Source: Afipia sp. OHSU_II-C1
GTDB taxonomy: Bacteria > Pseudomonadota > Alphaproteobacteria > Rhizobiales > Xanthobacteraceae
DNA length: 64,000 bases
Direction of reading: 5' to 3'
NCBI RefSeq assembly: GCF_000497575.1
Contig: NZ_APJI01000023.1
Span: 124,001-188,000 of the forward strand
Positions 6,403-26,943 of this stretch are shown one piece after another; the first letter of the stretch is position 1, and every line of letters begins with the position of its first letter. Below the pieces are notes generated by a model. It made no database searches and was not told where the DNA came from. It saw nothing but the letters and a program-made list of their open reading frames with translations. A program made the translations under genes and the position numbers.

Positions 6403-8193
6403 TCAGTTCGCCTGCGGATTCCACATCCTGTAGACCAGCGACACGCGGTAAGCCTCGTTAACGATTCGATGCGAACTGCCCGAACTCGCGAACGAGTTGG
6501 TCGTCAGGTTTCCAATGGTTCCGCCAAACCCTGCGCCGCCGGTCGGCGCATGGTTCCAGACATAGGTATCGCGAAGATACTCGCCGCGAACGAAGAAATT
6601 ATCCGAGGCCTTGAACTCCGCGCCGACACCCACCGAACTGCCGAGTATCTGCTCGAGATCATGTTGCCTCAACACTGTCGCAGCGCCAACCAGCGGAAAA
6701 CTCGGCTGCGAGATCACCATACCGCCGGCCGATGAGCCTATCGATCCCGCAACTTCGCCATACGACCATCCGCTCGATGCGAACACCGACAATTGCGGAG
6801 TTACAACAAAGCCGAACTGGAAGCGGATATGGTTTTTGCTCTCGACGGAGAGGTTTCCGGCCATCGCGAAGCCGAGGCAAGCGGTGGACGGCGAGAAAAA
6901 GTAGCATGTCTGATCGCGGCCGCCTTCGCCACCAAACTGGCCAGGGCTTTTTTTGCTGGTGAGCCGGTCAAGTGATTCCAGTTCCAGATCCGCTTCGATG
7001 CCGAGCCAGAAGCGGTTCAACTGGGCACGGTAACCGATCAGGATATGGCCGCCAGTGCTGTCCAGAGTACGCGCCAGATCGAAACGATTCGAATACAAGG
7101 CATTTGTATTTGCATCAAAGAAAGACAGCCGCGCGGCATCGACGTCGCGGATTCGATAGTTGTTCTGCGTGAGTCCGCCGCCAACATAAAAGCCAGCCCA
7201 GGTGTTGGCATAGAGTTCCGGCGCAGACGTGAAGTGCGCAAGATCGAGCAGCGCGCCGTTGCCGGACAGGCCGTTTGGATCAAAACGATAGATCAGCGAG
7301 CCGCGGATCGTTTCATTGATGATGTTCGCCTTCCCGCCCGGCGTGTTCATCGACAGGAAATTTCCGTTCACCGTCGCCTGAACGGCGGCAGGATCAACAT
7401 CCAGACTATACCGGTCCTGAAGATATTCCAGACGGGCGACAATGTTTGGCGTGACCTTGGCCTGAATGCCGCCGCCGAAAGATGTGCCGACCAGGAGCTT
7501 GTTGGGCGAGATCGAATTTGCCGATGTAATGACGGGGGTTCCCGGCGACGATGTCAAGGTGAAGCCTACATGAGCACCGACGTCGTTGCTGCGCGCGAAA
7601 GCCGCGCCGCCGCTCACGAATCCCATAAGACTGGGCGTGATCTCGAAGCCGGCGATAGCGCGCAGATGCCCGAGCGTTTCGACGTAGCCGAAAACGCTTG
7701 GCTGGCCGCAGATAAAGTTGCCGGTCGAACCAACGCCGCAGGCGCCGCCTTCCGAACCGAAGGGCACATCCCAGAGCGATCGCGCACCGAATGTATAGTC
7801 CCCTTCGACACCGAACAGCGCGCGGTCGAACTGCGCCAGATAGCCGCCGAGCACATGGCCCTTGTTGATGTAGTCCTGGGTCTGGAGTTTGTAGGTATCG
7901 GTCGTATCCTGGCCGAAAGTCCCGTCCAGAAAGGCGGTCCCCAGACCTGCATGGTCGATCCTGCTTCTTTCGCGGCCATAACCAGCACCGATGTAAAAGC
8001 CAGCCCATGATGGCCCGACGGCAACGGGAGGCGCGGGAGAAACAGGTTGCGCGGCCATTGCATCGCCCGCTGGCGAATTCCGGATCGCGGCTGCACGTTC
8101 GGCGAACGACGAACGATCGGTGGTTTGAGCTGATGCGGGCAGCGCCGAAAAGGCAAGCACCGCGATCGCCGATAAAACGGCTGTTTTGGTCAT
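6403..8193 (-). CDS. Outer-membrane protein with two tandem Omp25-like beta barrels
   Basis: A 596-residue protein with a signal peptide (residues 1-22, cut after ASA). It has two successive barrel domains of the Omp25/OmpA-like type that usually occurs singly at about 200-280 residues. Barrel 1 begins WAGFYIGAGYG at about 63 and ends in an amphipathic strand ETIRGSLIYRF near 295-304. Barrel 2 begins WAGFYVGGGL at about 332 and ends NEAYRVSLVYRM near the C-terminus. Each has alternating strands such as GHVLGGYLAQFDRALFGVEGDY and GHILIGYRAQLNRFWLGIEADL. Both barrels look intact. This implies duplication and fusion; function could be structural or porin-like. Monocistronic. Confidence 0.85.
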   Translation of the reverse strand: MTKTAVLSAIAVLAFSALPASAQTTDRSSFAERAAAIRNSPAGDAMAAQPVSPAPPVAVGPSWAGFYIGAGYGRERSRIDHAGLGTAFLDGTFGQDTTDTYKLQTQDYINKGHVLGGYLAQFDRALFGVEGDYTFGARSLWDVPFGSEGGACGVGSTGNFICGQPSVFGYVETLGHLRAIAGFEITPSLMGFVSGGAAFARSNDVGAHVGFTLTSSPGTPVITSANSISPNKLLVGTSFGGGIQAKVTPNIVARLEYLQDRYSLDVDPAAVQATVNGNFLSMNTPGGKANIINETIRGSLIYRFDPNGLSGNGALLDLAHFTSAPELYANTWAGFYVGGGLTQNNYRIRDVDAARLSFFDANTNALYSNRFDLARTLDSTGGHILIGYRAQLNRFWLGIEADLELESLDRLTSKKSPGQFGGEGGRDQTCYFFSPSTACLGFAMAGNLSVESKNHIRFQFGFVVTPQLSVFASSGWSYGEVAGSIGSSAGGMVISQPSFPLVGAATVLRQHDLEQILGSSVGVGAEFKASDNFFVRGEYLRDTYVWNHAPTGGAGFGGTIGNLTTNSFASSGSSHRIVNEAYRVSLVYRMWNPQAN

Positions 8194-8502: not shown

Positions 8503-8865
8503 TCAGGCCGCCAGCATCTTGTTCACTTCGCTGACCAGCTCGCGCAGGTGAACCGGCTTGGACAGGACCTTGGCGTTCTTGGGTGCCTCGGAGTCCGAAT
8601 TCAGCGCCACGGCGGCAAAGCCGGTGATGAACATGATTTTGATATCGGGATCCAGCTCCGACGCGCGGCGCGCCAGTTCGATCCCGTCCATCTCCGGCAT
8701 CACGATGTCGGTTAGAAGCATTTCAAAAGGTTCTTCGCGGAGCCTCTGATAGGCTGACAGCCCGTTGTCATAGGACGAGACCTGAAACCCTGCATTCTCC
8801 AGCGCTTTGACCAGAAAGCGGCGCATGTCGTTGTCGTCTTCGGCAAGGAGAATTTTGTGCTGCAT
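8503..8865 (-). CDS. cpdR: CpdR-type single-domain response regulator
   Basis: A 120-residue stand-alone receiver domain. The acidic pair is at Asp10/Asp11, the phosphoacceptor Asp53 is in LLTDIVMPEMDGIELARRASELDPD, with Thr81 and Lys103. The run IMFITGFAAVAL and the ending KVLSKPVHLRELVSEVNKMLA are characteristic of CpdR. In Caulobacter, unphosphorylated CpdR is the adaptor that primes ClpXP for cell-cycle proteolysis (PdeA, CtrA pathway), and CckA-ChpT phosphorylation switches it off. It is divergent from an N-formylglutamate amidohydrolase-like gene, a pairing I associate with this order. Confidence 0.9.
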   Translation of the reverse strand: MQHKILLAEDDNDMRRFLVKALENAGFQVSSYDNGLSAYQRLREEPFEMLLTDIVMPEMDGIELARRASELDPDIKIMFITGFAAVALNSDSEAPKNAKVLSKPVHLRELVSEVNKMLAA

Positions 8866-9097
8866 GGTCCCGGTCGTCTTAATCGCGTGAATGGAGAAGT
8901 CCCCTGCCTTCTATTTGCCCGATGGGTAGTAAATTTCGGGTGAAGGCGAACTTCCTCTTGGCAGAACGGTTAGCTTTGCGGACAATGATCCTGAACGAAA
9001 CATCTGCTTTTCCGGCGAAAATGTGTTGCCCGGGCAGGCATTTCAGCAGCGGCGAGCATAACGCCGCGGGTGAAAATGGCGAGGAAAAGAGGTGGCA

Positions 9098-9985
9098 ATG
9101 ACCCAGTTCGAGGACGAATTGTCGCCTCCGTTCGAGATCATCGAGCCGCCGGTCTGGCGGGCGCCGATCATCTTCAATTCCCCGCATTCCGGATCGGTCT
9201 ATCCCCGCGAATTTCTGGCCGCGTCCCGCATCGACGAGTCGGCGCTGCGGCGTTCGGAAGATTCGTTCATGGACGAGATCATCGCGGATCTCACCGGCCG
9301 CGGATTTCCAATCATGCGGGTGAATTTTCCGCGCTCCTATGTTGACGTCAATCGCGAGCCGTACGAACTCGATCCGCGCATGTTCGCCGGACGGCTGCCG
9401 AGCTTTGCAAATACGCGCTCGATGCGGGTTGCAGGCGGTTTGGGTACGATTCCGCGCGTCGTCGGCGACGGCCAGGAAATCTACTTTGAACGCCTCGATG
9501 TCGAGGACGCACTGAACCGGATCGAGGCGCTGTACAAGCCCTATCACCGCGCCCTGCGCCGTCTCATCAACAAGGCGCATCAGGCATTCGGCACGGTCAT
9601 TCTGGTCGATTGCCATTCGATGCCGTCGGTGGGTGTTACCCGCGATGAACCCAAGCGTCCCGATGTCGTGATCGGCGACCGCTACGGCACAAGCTGCGCC
9701 GGCCTGCTGGCCGATGTCGTCGAGGAAACGCTGACCGGGCTCGGATATTCGGTAGGCCGCAACAAGCCCTATGCGGGCGGCTTCATCACCGAGCACTATG
9801 GCAACCCGGCCAGCGGACTGCATACCGTCCAGCTTGAACTCAACCGTGCAATCTACATGGACGAACGGCGTCGCGAGCGCGGCCCGCAGTTCCGCAAGGT
9901 CGCCGACGATTTCATGATGCTGGCAGAGGCGCTGGCTGCGATTCCACTCGACAGCCTCGGGCCATTCCAGGCGGCGGCGGAGTAG
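9098..9985 (+). CDS. N-formylglutamate amidohydrolase family protein
   Basis: A 295-residue member of the N-formylglutamate amidohydrolase family (HutG/FGase fold, carboxypeptidase-A-like zinc hydrolase). Signatures are IIFNSPHSGSVYP near the N-terminus, with the zinc-ligand histidine, then RVNFPRSYVDVNREPYELD, ILVDCHSMPSVG with the second histidine, and GGFITEHYG. HutG proper converts N-formylglutamate to glutamate and formate in histidine breakdown. No other hut genes are near, so the substrate is not certain. The start is the ATG at 9098 with an AAGAGG site five bases upstream; the GTG at 9092 overlaps that site. Confidence 0.88.
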   Translation: MTQFEDELSPPFEIIEPPVWRAPIIFNSPHSGSVYPREFLAASRIDESALRRSEDSFMDEIIADLTGRGFPIMRVNFPRSYVDVNREPYELDPRMFAGRLPSFANTRSMRVAGGLGTIPRVVGDGQEIYFERLDVEDALNRIEALYKPYHRALRRLINKAHQAFGTVILVDCHSMPSVGVTRDEPKRPDVVIGDRYGTSCAGLLADVVEETLTGLGYSVGRNKPYAGGFITEHYGNPASGLHTVQLELNRAIYMDERRRERGPQFRKVADDFMMLAEALAAIPLDSLGPFQAAAE

Positions 9986-10054
9986 AAGTTACCATCCGCG
10001 GGTCCTCGCATGCCGGCGCAAAGAGGCGGCCGCTAGCCGCGCCACCCGCCCAAG

Positions 10055-10140
10055 AAAAAAGGGCCACTCGCGAAAGCAAGTGGCCCAAGTCTAGGGAGGA
10101 AACGCCCAAGGAGGGCAGCAATAACGCGAGGCGTTATCGC
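10055..10140 (-). ncRNA. Candidate anti-Shine-Dalgarno small RNA (cuckoo/CcsR-like architecture)
   Basis: Read on the minus strand this 86-base stretch shows a compact three-hairpin layout. First is a perfect 7-base-pair hairpin (ATAACGC, CTC loop, GCGTTAT; 10121-10137). Second is GCCC-TCCTT-GGGC, with the anti-SD sequence TCCTT in its loop (10104-10116). Next comes an unpaired TTTCCTCCCTAG (10091-10102), complementary to AGGGAGGAAA-type ribosome sites. Last is a strong terminator hairpin (10061-10086) followed by six T. Anti-SD motifs of this kind define several alphaproteobacterial small-RNA families that act on many mRNAs. The family assignment is by architecture only. Confidence 0.65.
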
Positions 10141-10148
10141 ACCGCAAC

Positions 10149-10178
10149 AATATGCAGCCGCAACGCACTCAAGGCAAG
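10149..10178 (-). promoter_or_regulatory. Possible promoter of the small RNA
   Basis: On the minus strand CTTGCC, 17 bases, GCATAT, ending about ten bases before the first hairpin of the RNA candidate. This is close to the alphaproteobacterial sigma-70 pattern. Confidence 0.45.
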
Positions 10179-10197
10179 TATTTTTAAAGATTTAGTC

Positions 10198-10332
10198 ATG
10201 CTCTACATGCATGACAGACTTGCGATCACTCCTCCGAGGCAGCAAGAGTTCTTTGTTAAATATCAAAGTCTTATGAAGAATTATGACAATTGTGCACTGC
10301 CAAAAAAGCATGAAAATGCACCCAAGAAGTGA
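10198..10332 (+). CDS. Possible 44-residue protein in the AT-rich gap
   Basis: A short frame from ATG 10198 (second in-frame ATG at 10207) to a TGA at 10332, starting MLYMHDRLAITPP and ending in a lysine-rich tail. It reads like protein (few rare residues, balanced composition) but has no convincing ribosome site, and 44 open codons are not statistically unusual. Divergent from the small-RNA promoter. I recognise no family. Confidence 0.2.
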   Translation: MLYMHDRLAITPPRQQEFFVKYQSLMKNYDNCALPKKHENAPKK

Positions 10333-10530
10333 ATAAAGATGTCAATTTATTGGCTGTCAAGCTTTCATTTGCACCTTCACTTTGGAATCTCAAAGTAAAG
10401 AATGAACACTCCGGTTAGTGTCCAGCCATCAGAGTTTGCGGCGATTGCTCCGCTCCCCGGACTCTTATAGGGCCGTAACAGGTTCGCACTTACACTCCAT
10501 CGGCATCGTGGTTGCTCTAAAGGAATCCTC

Positions 10531-11313
10531 GTGACGGTCATCGACTTCACCGCTTTCATCGGACGACTGGCGACCGCCTCGGGCGACACCATCCTTCCCT
10601 TCTTCCGCACCTCGCTCAGCGTCGAGAACAAGAACGCCGGACGCGATCTCGATCCGGTCACCGAGGCCGACCGCGCCGCCGAGGCGGTGATGCGCCGGAT
10701 GATCAAGGACAGCTTTCCGCTGCACGGCATTATCGGCGAGGAGTTCGGATCCGAACGCGCTGATGCGGAATATGTCTGGGTGTTGGACCCGATCGACGGG
10801 ACCAAGTCTTTCATCGCCGGTCTGCCGATCTGGGGCACGCTGATTGCGTTGATGCACAACGGCACCCCGGTGTTCGGCATGATGCATCAACCCTATATCG
10901 GCGAACGTTTCAGCGGCGACGGCGGTTCCGCGCGCTACGATGGAGCATCCGGCAAACGAAAACTGCAGGTGCGGCGGTGCGCATCGCTCGCAGAAGCGAC
11001 GCTGTTCACCACCAGCCCCCGATTGATGAAGGCGCCGGACCGCGCGCAGTTCGAGCGCGTCGAAGCCGGCGTACGATTGTCGCGTTACGGCGGCGATTGC
11101 TACGCCTATTGCATGCTCGCCGCAGGACATCTCGATCTCATCATCGAGACCGAGCTGAAGCCGTACGACGTTGCAGCCCTGATTCCGATCGTCACCGGCG
11201 CCGGCGGCATCATCACCACCTGGGACGGCAAGCCCGCACAATCCGGCGGACGCATCGTCGCGGCCGGCGACAAGCGCGTCCATGAAGAGGCACTGAAGAT
11301 TCTGAACGCCTGA
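10531..11313 (+). CDS. hisN: Histidinol-phosphatase, inositol-monophosphatase type
   Basis: A 260-residue IMPase-superfamily enzyme. Metal-site motifs are DPVTEAD (41-47), IGEEFG with Glu70/Glu71, WVLDPIDGTKSF (84-94), and a late YDVAAL. The pattern and length fit HisN, which removes phosphate from histidinol phosphate, the penultimate step of histidine synthesis; actinobacteria and many alphaproteobacteria use this type. Start is GTG 10531 with AAAGGA nine bases upstream. hisZG lies 23 kb away, so the pathway is dispersed. A generic inositol monophosphatase activity cannot be excluded. The cysQ gene at 28 kb is a paralogue. Confidence 0.85.
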   Translation: MTVIDFTAFIGRLATASGDTILPFFRTSLSVENKNAGRDLDPVTEADRAAEAVMRRMIKDSFPLHGIIGEEFGSERADAEYVWVLDPIDGTKSFIAGLPIWGTLIALMHNGTPVFGMMHQPYIGERFSGDGGSARYDGASGKRKLQVRRCASLAEATLFTTSPRLMKAPDRAQFERVEAGVRLSRYGGDCYAYCMLAAGHLDLIIETELKPYDVAALIPIVTGAGGIITTWDGKPAQSGGRIVAAGDKRVHEEALKILNA

Positions 11314-24635: not shown

Positions 24636-25646
24636 TTACCCCGCGCGCGCTTTTGCCAGCCGCGCCGTTACGAAATTCCGCAGCATCGTTTCGTCATCGA
24701 ACGCCAGCGTGACCGCGAGGGTCGCGATGCGGTCCGCATAAGCCTTGAGACGGGCATCGCTGCGGATGCGCGCCATATCCTTTTCGGTGGTCACCAGCTT
24801 AAGTGTTTTTGCTGTGGCGTCCGACACCAGCCGCCCGATCTCGTCCGGCGTGAATGGATGGTGATCGGCGAAGGCCCTTTGCTCGATCACGTCCACGCCG
24901 CTGGCACGCAGCGTCGCAAAGAACCGCGCCGGATCGCCGATCCCTGCAAACGCCAGCACGCGCTGGCCGCGCAGCCTGCCGACTGAAGCCTGATCCGGAA
25001 CGAGCCGGGCGCGCAGGACGGGCGCACCGCGCTTCGCCAGCACTGCTGCGATTTGATCGGCCGCATCGCCTTCACCGATCACGATCAGCGCATCGGTGCG
25101 CGCGAACTGCGGTTCAAGCGGCGCCCGCAGCGGTCCAGCCGGGAACACACCGCCGTTGCCGATGCCGCGCGCAGCATCGATCACGATCAGCGACCCATCC
25201 TTGGCCAGCGCCGGATTCTGGAAACCGTCATCCAGCAGGACGACACTCGCACCCGATGCACTCGCCAGCGCTGCGCCGGCCACACGGTCGCGCGAGACGA
25301 TGACGGGCAAGCTTGACGCCAGCATCAGCGGCTCATCGCCAACATCGGCGGCGGAATGCGACGCCGGATCGACGCGCAGAGGCCCCTGCTGCGTTCCGCC
25401 GTAACCACGGCTGACCACGAATGGCTGCTCGCCAAATTCGCGGAGCAGTTTCACGAGGGCCAGCGTGGTCGGCGTCTTCCCCGCGCCGCCGAGATGATAG
25501 TTGCCGACGCAAAGAACCGGAATTCCTGCAGACGCTCCGGCGCGCGACATCCGCCGCGCGGTGATCGCTCCGTAAATCGCGCCGAACGGCGCAAGCAGTC
25601 GCGACAACAACGATGGCGGCCGATACCAGAAGGCCGGCTCACGCAT
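24636..25646 (-). CDS. lpxK: Tetraacyldisaccharide 4'-kinase LpxK
   Basis: A 336-residue membrane-associated kinase that phosphorylates the 4' position of the lipid A disaccharide. It begins MREPAFWYRPPSLLSRLLAPFGAIYGAI, the conserved membrane-facing start. The P-loop is GNYHLGGAGKTPT; later VVLLDDGFQNPAL carries the DDGFQ motif. I chose ATG 25646, preceded by GGAGGAAG; longer frames run into waaA. The start overlaps the waaA stop by eight bases, showing coupling. Last gene of the pmbA-cysQ-DUF4170-DUF374-waaA-lpxK unit. Confidence 0.95.
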   Translation of the reverse strand: MREPAFWYRPPSLLSRLLAPFGAIYGAITARRMSRAGASAGIPVLCVGNYHLGGAGKTPTTLALVKLLREFGEQPFVVSRGYGGTQQGPLRVDPASHSAADVGDEPLMLASSLPVIVSRDRVAGAALASASGASVVLLDDGFQNPALAKDGSLIVIDAARGIGNGGVFPAGPLRAPLEPQFARTDALIVIGEGDAADQIAAVLAKRGAPVLRARLVPDQASVGRLRGQRVLAFAGIGDPARFFATLRASGVDVIEQRAFADHHPFTPDEIGRLVSDATAKTLKLVTTEKDMARIRSDARLKAYADRIATLAVTLAFDDETMLRNFVTARLAKARAG

Positions 25647-26943
25647 CGGCGCTTCCTCCCTCCAGCCGCAACTGCAGGAGATATGGCTCCAGCGCAGCAA
25701 GCGTCTTGTCCAATGCGCCGCCGAGCCGGCCGACAACGGCTTCCGCCGCACCGACGGAACGCTGCCGGGCAATCGGGTTCACCAGCAAGTGCCCGAGCGA
25801 CTTCACAAAGTCCTCGCCAGTCTCGGTACGAATGGCGCCGCCGGCCTGATTCAGCGCTTCATAAATGTCATCGAAATTGAACACGTGCGGCCCGTGCAGG
25901 ATGGCCGCGCCCAGCTTGATGCCTTCGATCGGATTCTGCCCGCCGTGCGCCACCAGCGAACCGCCCATGAACACCACCGGCGCCAGACGGTAGAACAATC
26001 CCAGTTCACCCATGGTGTCGGCGACGTAGATGTCCGTCTCGGGGCCCGGCAGTTCGTCCTGCGAGCGCAAGGCCACCCGCATGCCACCATCCGTCAGCAT
26101 GCGCGCAATGGCCGCGCCGCGGTTGGGATGACGCGGCACGATCACGCTCAACAGTTGCGGCATGCGTGCCGCCAGACGCCGATGGGCGTCAAGAATGATT
26201 TCGTCCTCGCCCGGATGGGTGGAGGCTGCGAGGAACACCAGCCGGCGCTGCATGGCCTCCCTGAGGCGTTCCAGCTTTCTCACGTCCGCCGGCGGAGCCT
26301 CGACATCGAGTTTCAGATTTCCGGACGTGACAACGTTCGGACAACCCAGCGCCGCAAAGCGCTCGCCGTCGCGATCGGATTGCGCGAGGCAGAGATCGAA
26401 ACACTCCAGCAGCGTGGAGATCGTGCCGCGCAGTTTCTGCCAGCGCGGAAACGAGCGCGGCGACATGCGGCCATTGATGATGACCATCGGGATGCGCCGC
26501 TCGGCGCTCGACAGGATCAAGTTGGGCCAGATGTCGGACTCGATGAACAGCGCGAGGCCCGGCTTCCAGTGATCGAGAAACGCCGACACGAAACGCGGCG
26601 AATCGAACGGGATATACTGATGAATGACGTCGGGCGGAAAGCGCCGCGCCACAATGGCCGCCGACGTGACCGTGCCCGAGGTCAGCAGGATGCGGACATT
26701 TAGCGCACGCAGCCGCTCGATCAGTCCCGCCGCCGCAAGCACCTCGCCGACACTCGCGCCATGAATCCAGATCAGGGGTCCGGAAGGGCGCTCGATGCTC
26801 GCAACACCGCGGCGTTCGCCGAGCCGCTCGGGATCTTCCTTGCCCTGCTTCAGCCGGCGCGCGATCAGCGGCGCTGCGAGCGGCGCGGCAAGAGCCGACA
26901 GCCGCCGATACGCCGCAAGCGTCGCAGGCAACGCGCTAGGCAT
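25639..26943 (-). CDS. waaA: Kdo transferase WaaA (KdtA)
   Basis: A 434-residue glycosyltransferase of family GT30. The N-terminal hydrophobic stretch anchors it to the inner membrane. Features are WIHGASVGEVLAA, FIESDIWPNLI, and late FMGGSLVAHGGQNPIEGIKLGAAILHGPHVFNF. It transfers Kdo from CMP-Kdo to lipid IVA; the number of residues added is not visible in sequence. Start 26943 overlaps the DUF374 stop by eight bases, and its stop overlaps the lpxK start by eight. This tight chain makes one operon. Confidence 0.95.
   Translation of the reverse strand: MPSALPATLAAYRRLSALAAPLAAPLIARRLKQGKEDPERLGERRGVASIERPSGPLIWIHGASVGEVLAAAGLIERLRALNVRILLTSGTVTSAAIVARRFPPDVIHQYIPFDSPRFVSAFLDHWKPGLALFIESDIWPNLILSSAERRIPMVIINGRMSPRSFPRWQKLRGTISTLLECFDLCLAQSDRDGERFAALGCPNVVTSGNLKLDVEAPPADVRKLERLREAMQRRLVFLAASTHPGEDEIILDAHRRLAARMPQLLSVIVPRHPNRGAAIARMLTDGGMRVALRSQDELPGPETDIYVADTMGELGLFYRLAPVVFMGGSLVAHGGQNPIEGIKLGAAILHGPHVFNFDDIYEALNQAGGAIRTETGEDFVKSLGHLLVNPIARQRSVGAAEAVVGRLGGALDKTLAALEPYLLQLRLEGGSADA

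What the first reader, a model, noticed from the sequence alone, without database searches (positions are those of the whole stretch)
10055..10178. Candidate anti-Shine-Dalgarno small RNA with promoter and terminator
On the minus strand there is a promoter-like pair (CTTGCC, 17 bases, GCATAT), a perfect hairpin, a second hairpin with TCCTT in its loop, an unpaired TTTCCTCCCTAG, and a strong terminator with six T. This is the layout of alphaproteobacterial regulatory RNAs that use exposed CCUCC-type motifs to block ribosome sites of many mRNAs (cuckoo, CcsR and related groups). No gene that needs this terminator lies upstream on the minus strand, so an independent RNA is the simplest reading.
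Basis: partly seen in the sequence, partly recalled or inferred. Interest (0 to 1): 0.72.

Follow-up and report, generated by a model that had tools for sequence, protein, structure and literature searches.

The report
PHB-linked MmgR/alphaR8 small RNA
This Afipia-like genome carries, between two metabolic genes, a copy of an already known alphaproteobacterial small RNA family (MmgR/alphaR8) that is predicted to block the ribosome sites of nutrient-uptake messages and likely to be switched on when the cell's carbon store (PHB) fills up.

Summary
In detail: promoter (CTTGCC-17-GCATAT), 5' hairpin, second hairpin, unpaired TTTCCTCCCTAG and terminator lie where stated on the minus strand. It is not cuckoo/CcsR: it scores 69.9 bits (cut-off 41) against Rfam RF00519 (suhB = MmgR, the alphaR8 family), holds the exact 10-mer UUUCCUCCCU and sits in the family's usual place beside an N-formylglutamate amidohydrolase gene. 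The 80 best named loci of 377 found, Afipia, Bradyrhizobium and kin, all keep the order amidohydrolase, RNA(-), inositol phosphatase; 79 of 80 keep the 18-base core unchanged. Beyond what I saw in print: (1) two boxes matching the published PhaR motif, 21 bp apart around the -10 element, in 78 of 79 distinct syntenic copies; (2) the 5' hairpin, outside the Rfam model, covaries and recurs across the class; (3) genes whose Shine-Dalgarno is GGGAGGAA, complementary to the core, are rich in solute-binding proteins: 26 of 84, against 3 of 82 with control Shine-Dalgarnos. Best model, mostly inferred: PHB titrates PhaR off this promoter, and the RNA then represses solute uptake and probably phasin. 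Known kind; modest interest.

The parts
10055..10143 (-). predicted sRNA transcript (alphaR8 / MmgR-like); 5' end near 10143-10141 inferred from the -10 element, 3' end in the U run
   Evidence: cmscan RF00519 69.9 bits at 10047-10123(-); fold z -8.7; promoter spacing
10173..10178 (-). -35 element CTTGCC
   Evidence: sequence; CTTG in the same register in 81 of 81
10150..10155 (-). -10 element GCATAT
   Evidence: sequence; CATATT in 81 of 81
10159..10167 (-). upstream PhaR-type box TGCGTTGCG, between -35 and -10
   Evidence: matches YGCRNYGCR, the core of the motif in PMC12542648; conserved
10138..10146 (-). second PhaR-type box TGCGGTGCG at the predicted start site, 21 bp from the first
10118..10140 (-). 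5' stem-loop (10 bp, 3-base loop), mostly outside the Rfam model, which starts at 10123
   Evidence: this helix 99.5% paired with 5 of 10 pairs changed on both sides; covariation score of the whole structure 0.312 against 0.162 in shuffles, 0 of 500 as high; z < -2 in 70 of 79 distinct segments
10104..10116 (-). short hairpin GCCC-UCCUU-GGGC directly before the core
   Evidence: RF00519 alignment; invariant in 22 of 22 distinct rows
10093..10102 (-). core 10-mer UUUCCUCCCU, anti-Shine-Dalgarno seed, unpaired
   Evidence: exact match to the family core given in PMC12559287; the 10-mer is unchanged in 80 of 80 syntenic loci (L075 differs at the base after it); unpaired
10055..10086 (-). intrinsic terminator, 11 bp stem and six T
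9092..9985 (+). N-formylglutamate amidohydrolase (FGase) gene, conserved neighbour
   Evidence: PF05013, E 6.6e-75
10531..11313 (+). inositol-monophosphatase family gene (hisN/suhB-type), conserved neighbour on the opposite strand
   Evidence: PF00459, E 2.1e-55; in 80 of 80 loci
25644..25660 (-). predicted target site: RBS GGGAGGAAGCGCCGATG of an LpxK gene
   Evidence: pattern hit G000:C23:149644; duplex -22.2 kcal/mol; PF02606
50167..50183 (-). predicted target site: RBS GGGAGGAAACTGCAATG of an L-lactate permease gene; one congener has the site too
   Evidence: (duplex -21.7); PF02652

Best explanation
The segment encodes a member of the known alphaR8 (suhB/MmgR/SisA) small RNA family that is predicted to pair, through its predicted-unpaired UUUCCUCCCU core, with Shine-Dalgarno sites of the GGGAGGAA type and so likely to block translation of solute-uptake and carbon-storage mRNAs. 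Shown here: family membership, conserved synteny, conserved promoter, two PhaR-type boxes 21 bp apart, a covarying 5' stem-loop, and enrichment of solute-binding-protein genes among genes with a seed-complementary ribosome site. Inferred: PhaR, whose gene is in the genome, represses the promoter; when PHB granules accumulate they would bind PhaR and release the RNA; the RNA would then lower solute import and phasin output, a negative feedback from a full carbon store. The 5' stem-loop would protect the 5' end and keep the core single-stranded. Help from Hfq is inferred from MmgR and SisA.
For: RF00519 69.9 bits, cut-off 41. A match in 194 of 198 genomes of the family, 158 of 158 good ones; 107 of 120 of the order; 89 of 143 of the class. 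18-base core unchanged in 79 of 80 syntenic loci, gene order in 80 of 80. PhaR box YGCRNYGCR: at least one upstream in 141 of 150 distinct copies against 149 of 1349 control windows; pairs 20-22 nt apart in 117 of 150 (106 pairs at exactly 21), exactly-21 pairs in 1 of 1349 controls. PhaR gene (PF07879) and five phasin-domain hits in the genome; PhaR-type boxes upstream of four of the five phasin ORFs. In S. meliloti PhaR binds the mmgR promoter (EMSA) and its loss raises MmgR (PMC12542648, passages). SisA, same core, represses targets by seed pairing (PMC12559287, sections and passages). GGGAGGAA-type RBS: solute-binding proteins 26 of 84 ORFs, each confirmed by Pfam, against 0 of 45 and 3 of 37 in two control sets; Fisher p 2.5e-6 by member, 0.001 by homology cluster. 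The main phasin leader gives a -17.7 kcal/mol duplex, better than 99.2% of 600 random window pieces.
Against: No expression or target data for this organism. The strictest 10-base seed pattern before an ATG finds no gene. By cluster against the closer control (AAGAGGAA) alone, p is only 0.048, and the sets are related genes from one genus. Solute-binding-protein mRNAs are also targets of AbcR and NfeR1 (PMC8844928, passages), so the enrichment does not single out this RNA. Two of five phasin leaders pair worse than most of the background and two are marginal. Boxes are not universal: 9 of 150 copies have none, and 9 of 31 class-level copies have a pair 19-22 nt apart; the 150 copies are related and not independent. 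PMC12559287 reports no shared motif upstream of sisA-D.
Confidence: 0.75

Rival explanations
1. It is a cuckoo/CcsR-type RNA: stem-loops that present CCUCC-type motifs, in a stress-response RNA group of alphaproteobacteria (description recalled).
For: It has CCUCC-type motifs, one in a hairpin loop, and a terminator.
Against: RF00519 is the only Rfam family found in 9980-10540 up to E 1 apart from a chance VIS1 hit; the neighbours are FGase, a single-domain response regulator and inositol phosphatase; the core motif is predicted unpaired, not in a loop.
Confidence: 0.02
2. It is an alphaR8 RNA, but its main targets are few (phasin, PHB granule genes), and the GGGAGGAA signature of uptake genes exists for other anti-SD RNAs such as AbcR or NfeR1 relatives.
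For: In S. meliloti loss of the MmgR core raises PhaP1/PhaP2 protein without changing their mRNA (PMC8401924, passage; the wording of PMC7143759 is less clear); AbcR1/2 and NfeR1 hit solute-binding-protein mRNAs; the strongest phasin leader pairs at -17.7 kcal/mol.
Against: SisA, with the same core, represses many mRNAs; GGGAGGAA is exactly complementary to UUCCUCCC, whereas AbcR aSD1 CUCCUCCC would favour GGGAGGAG.
Confidence: 0.2
3. The upstream palindromes are not PhaR sites but ordinary GC-rich promoter sequence, or sites of another regulator such as NtrC.
For: The 9-base motif is loose: 75 matches in the window, fewer than the shuffle mean of 126; NtrC also acts on mmgR in S. meliloti (PMC8401924, passage).
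Against: 141 of 150 against 149 of 1349 controls, with recurring spacing and position; PhaR binding to the mmgR promoter is reported in S. meliloti.
Confidence: 0.12
4. A terminator or attenuator relic without a separate transcript.
For: No transcript has been observed here; one weak paralogue hit (L005, 30.6 bits) looks like a plain gene terminator.
Against: No minus-strand gene directly upstream; promoter, core and stem conserved over many genera; the RNA is detected in S. meliloti and Caulobacter.
Confidence: 0.02

Closest known systems
MmgR (Sm8, SmelC689) of Sinorhizobium meliloti, alphaR8 family, Rfam RF00519
   Same: core, short hairpin and terminator; PhaR box in the promoter, negative control by PhaR reported there
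   Different: here two PhaR-type boxes 21 bp apart (one is listed for mmgR in PMC12542648); a 10-bp covarying 5' stem-loop ahead of the Rfam start; further family-like copies in the genome, whereas PMC12559287 calls MmgR the sole alphaR8 RNA of S. meliloti
SisA of Caulobacter crescentus (alphaR8)
   Same: identical 10-mer UUUCCUCCCU, position beside an FGase gene, anti-Shine-Dalgarno pairing
   Different: SisA is nearly constitutive and sponged by CrfA (PMC12559287, passages); no CrfA-like sponge was looked for here
AbcR1/2 (alphar15) and NfeR1 (alphar14)
   Same: anti-SD RNAs that silence solute-binding-protein mRNAs (PMC8844928, passages)
   Different: different RNA families; AbcR motifs CUCCUCCC and UUCCCCUC; no such Rfam match here

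Membership tests
alphaR8 / suhB / MmgR (RF00519) | covariance-model score above the curated cut-off | tested here: met
   69.9 bits against 41, full length 1-77
alphaR8 / suhB / MmgR (RF00519) | single-stranded core UUUCCUCCCU after a weak hairpin | tested here: met
   sequence and predicted fold; definition from PMC12559287
alphaR8 / suhB / MmgR (RF00519) | Rho-independent terminator | tested here: met
alphaR8 / suhB / MmgR (RF00519) | usual place beside FGase, opposite strand to the suhB-type gene | tested here: met
   PMC1273637 (it also says copies elsewhere have no fixed neighbours), PMC12559287
alphaR8 / suhB / MmgR (RF00519) | Hfq-bound transcript of about 77-90 nt | not testable with these tools
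   no RNA data; hfq was not looked for
cuckoo / CcsR | CCUCC motifs in stem-loop loops; CcsR beside ccaF1 (both recalled) | tested here: not met
   core motif predicted unpaired, though the short hairpin has UCCUU in its loop; no other Rfam family match; neighbours FGase and inositol phosphatase
PhaR regulon | PhaR box in the promoter and phaR in the genome | tested here: met
PhaR regulon | PhaR binding and PHB-dependent expression | not testable with these tools
   needs gel shift and mutants

The most novel reading that the evidence does not exclude
In Afipia and Bradyrhizobium the alphaR8 RNA is the output arm of a carbon-store gauge: PHB granules pull PhaR off a twin operator, the RNA rises, and its anti-Shine-Dalgarno core shuts down a whole class of periplasmic solute-binding proteins and carbon-catabolism genes, so that a full store throttles import.
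Probability: 0.35. Interest if true: 0.6.

Novelty: new member of a known kind. Interest (0 to 1): 0.33.

Why it matters
MmgR tunes PHB, but no direct base-pairing target had been identified for it according to the 2025 SisA paper (passage), while SisA has validated targets and, in the passages I read, no stated PHB link. The conserved twin PhaR boxes and the solute-binding-protein leaders would join the two halves and give a testable circuit in Bradyrhizobium and Afipia. The covarying 5' stem-loop suggests that the Rfam model cuts off part of the RNA.

Tried and rejected
Cuckoo/CcsR membership: rejected by Rfam and by the neighbours. VIS1 hit (24 bits, cut-off 100): chance. Strict 10-base target pattern AGGGAGGAAAN{2,11}ATG: no hit in the own genome, so the 8-base pattern GGGAGGAAN{3,10}ATG was used. 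Paralogue L005: looks like a plain terminator. A first covariation set chosen by fold was dropped as circular and replaced by one chosen by distance to the PhaR box. Sponge RNA (CrfA-like), NtrC sites and hfq: not looked for.

Rows dropped. Target statistics use 9 of the 16 genomes searched (own plus eight relatives of at least 99% completeness whose sites were listed in full); G314, G315, G316, G318 and G322 were not listed, G320 in part, G319 in full but fetched for one site only, which is counted and left out of the statistics. Test set: 135 matches in the nine genomes, 7 second ATGs of one site and 2 G168 sites not fetched, 126 examined, 84 with an ORF of 100 codons or more. Control 1 (TAAGGAGA): 70 of 70 examined, 45 kept, 2 duplicates removed. 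Control 2 (AAGAGGAA): 70 of 76 examined (1 duplicate, 5 G168 sites not fetched), 37 kept. All 26 solute-binding proteins of the test set and the 3 of control 2 were confirmed one by one with Pfam. The 0 of 45 for control 1 rests on the 25 of 47 families shown (the other 22 have one member each), a BLAST against the test set, reading, and a Pfam scan of ten of the less obvious members. For control 2 Pfam showed 25 of 49 families; the rest was read by eye.

Full report
What is there. The fold is far better than shuffles (z -8.7, 0 of 200).

What it is. The whole Rfam release matched against the window gives RF00519 (suhB, described as mmgR) at 10047-10123(-), 69.9 bits, cut-off 41, full length. 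RF00519 was described in 2005 as an RNA from the strand opposite a suhB-type gene with its own promoter and terminator, five copies in B. japonicum (PMC1273637, passage); a suhB RNA was listed in Oligotropha carboxidovorans by RfamScan in 2010 (PMC3091675, passage). The family is now called alphaR8; its core is 5'-UUUCCUCCCU-3', and most species carry one copy beside an FGase gene (PMC12559287, section 7). The window has that core, and an FGase gene (PF05013) and an inositol-phosphatase gene (PF00459) as neighbours.

Conservation. The FGase query found 377 relatives and returned the best 80 named loci, the closest (96% identity) Afipia, then Bradyrhizobium, Tardiphaga and others. All 80 hold the RNA; 79 of 80 have the 18-base core unchanged, and L075 differs at one base outside the 10-mer; all 80 have the order FGase(+), RNA(-), inositol phosphatase(+); CTTG-N20-CATATT is in register in 81 of 81, window included. 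Wider: 194 of 198 genomes of the family, 107 of 120 of the order, 89 of 143 of the class have an RF00519 match. The genome itself has five hits: 69.9, 54.6 and 43.1 bits above the cut-off, 39.2 and 30.6 below it. The first four have a recognisable core region, altered in the third (UUUCCUACCU); the fifth looks like a terminator.

The 5' stem-loop. It lies almost wholly before the start of the 77-base Rfam model (10123). On 22 distinct sequences chosen by box distance, not by fold, helix 1 is 99.5% paired, five of ten pairs change on both sides, and the covariation score of the structure is 0.312 against 0.162 in shuffles, 0 of 500 as high; slid versions reach at most 0.120. In 70 of 79 distinct segments from the window, syntenic, family and order copies the 37 bases before the short hairpin fold with z below -2, and in 27 of 31 class-level copies, one of them from the same order. 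MmgR is described as having three stem-loops (PMC7143759, passage), so a 5' stem-loop as such may not be new; the 2005 paper names only a short helix near the 5' end besides the terminator. I saw no covariation evidence for this stem in the passages read; of the main MmgR papers, Lagares 2017 is not held, and Lagares 2016 did not come up in the searches and was not looked up.

The promoter. The PhaR motif published for S. meliloti has the core YGCRNYGCR (PMC12542648, passages). The window has it at 10167-10159, between -35 and -10, and at 10146-10138, at the predicted start, 21 bp apart. Of 150 distinct copies (window, 79 syntenic, 35 family, 35 order) 141 have at least one box upstream, against 149 of 1349 control windows from the same loci; 117 have two boxes 20-22 nt apart, and there are 106 pairs at exactly 21, against 1 control window with a pair at 21. 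In the class-level copies 25 of 31 have a box and 9 of 31 a pair 19-22 nt apart. The motif alone is loose and not enriched in the window (75 matches, shuffle mean 126); it is position, spacing and conservation that speak. The genome encodes PhaR (PF07879, 107.7 bits) and five phasin-domain hits; boxes lie upstream of four of the five ORFs, though for L171 the start taken there is doubtful. In S. meliloti PhaR binds the mmgR promoter, and one box is listed there.

Targets. GGGAGGAAN{3,10}ATG, complementary to UUCCUCCC, gives 22 matches in the own genome against none for the reversed pattern; the 10-base version gives none. Over nine genomes of the genus, 84 ORFs of 100 codons or more follow such a site; 26 are solute-binding proteins (Peripla_BP_6 11, DctP 4, TctC 3, NMT1 3, NMT1_3 2, SBP_bac_1 2, SBP_bac_5 1), besides PaaA, PQQ dehydrogenases and lactate permease. 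Two control Shine-Dalgarno sets give 0 of 45 (TAAGGAGA) and 3 of 37 (AAGAGGAA). Fisher p is 2.5e-6 by member, 0.001 by homology cluster (15 of 62 against 2 of 61), 0.048 by cluster against the closer control alone. PaaA and a PQQ dehydrogenase have the site in three genomes, a LivJ-type protein (L242, L248, L223) in three, an MFS transporter in four counting the G319 site. The main phasin leader pairs at -17.7 kcal/mol over its ribosome site, better than 99.2% of 600 random pieces, with 3 of 43 window ORF leaders as good; two other phasin leaders are marginal and two do not pair well. AbcR and NfeR1 also silence such mRNAs (PMC8844928, passages), so the signature may be shared among RNAs.

How it likely works. 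PhaR would repress the promoter; PHB granules would take PhaR away; the RNA would then pair with GGGAGGAA-type ribosome sites and lower solute import and phasin. The pairing mode is reported for SisA (PMC12559287, sections 7 and 9), the repression by PhaR for mmgR; neither is shown here.

Verdict. A well-conserved small RNA gene, but a member of a known family under its own Rfam entry. What is added is the twin PhaR boxes, the covarying 5' stem-loop and a statistically supported guess at its targets. Paper searches behind this; open-access papers only.

Noticed in passing
L003 1501-1576 (G000:C6:199647-199722): A paralogue with a changed core (UUUCCUACCU) and part of the same 5' hairpin sequence: a decaying or re-aimed duplicate.
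   Followed up: partly
L002 and L004: Two further copies with the core region largely kept: L002 (54.6 bits, one base changed after the 10-mer) on a 27-kb contig, L004 (39.2 bits, below the cut-off) with a longer first hairpin.
   Followed up: partly
plasmid records: 17 plasmid records (Methylobacterium, Bradyrhizobium, Microvirga, Methylorubrum, Ancylobacter) hold stretches similar to this RNA; no feature is listed under the best place of any of them.
   Followed up: no
L091, L093, L094, L096, L097, L098, L105: Two alphaR8 copies a few hundred bases apart with the same core but different 5' hairpins and box arrangement.
   Followed up: no
window 8503-8865 (-): Single-domain response regulator (PF00072), CpdR-like by recollection.
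   Followed up: no
window 6403-8193 (-): 596-aa protein that reads like two outer-membrane beta-barrel repeats behind a signal-like start; Pfam reports one (PF13505 at 320-541).
   Followed up: no
nine genomes of the genus: The TAAGGAGA Shine-Dalgarno set is rich in housekeeping genes (ATP synthase, nitrate reductase), the GGGAGGAA set in uptake genes: Shine-Dalgarno type seems to track gene class.
   Followed up: partly
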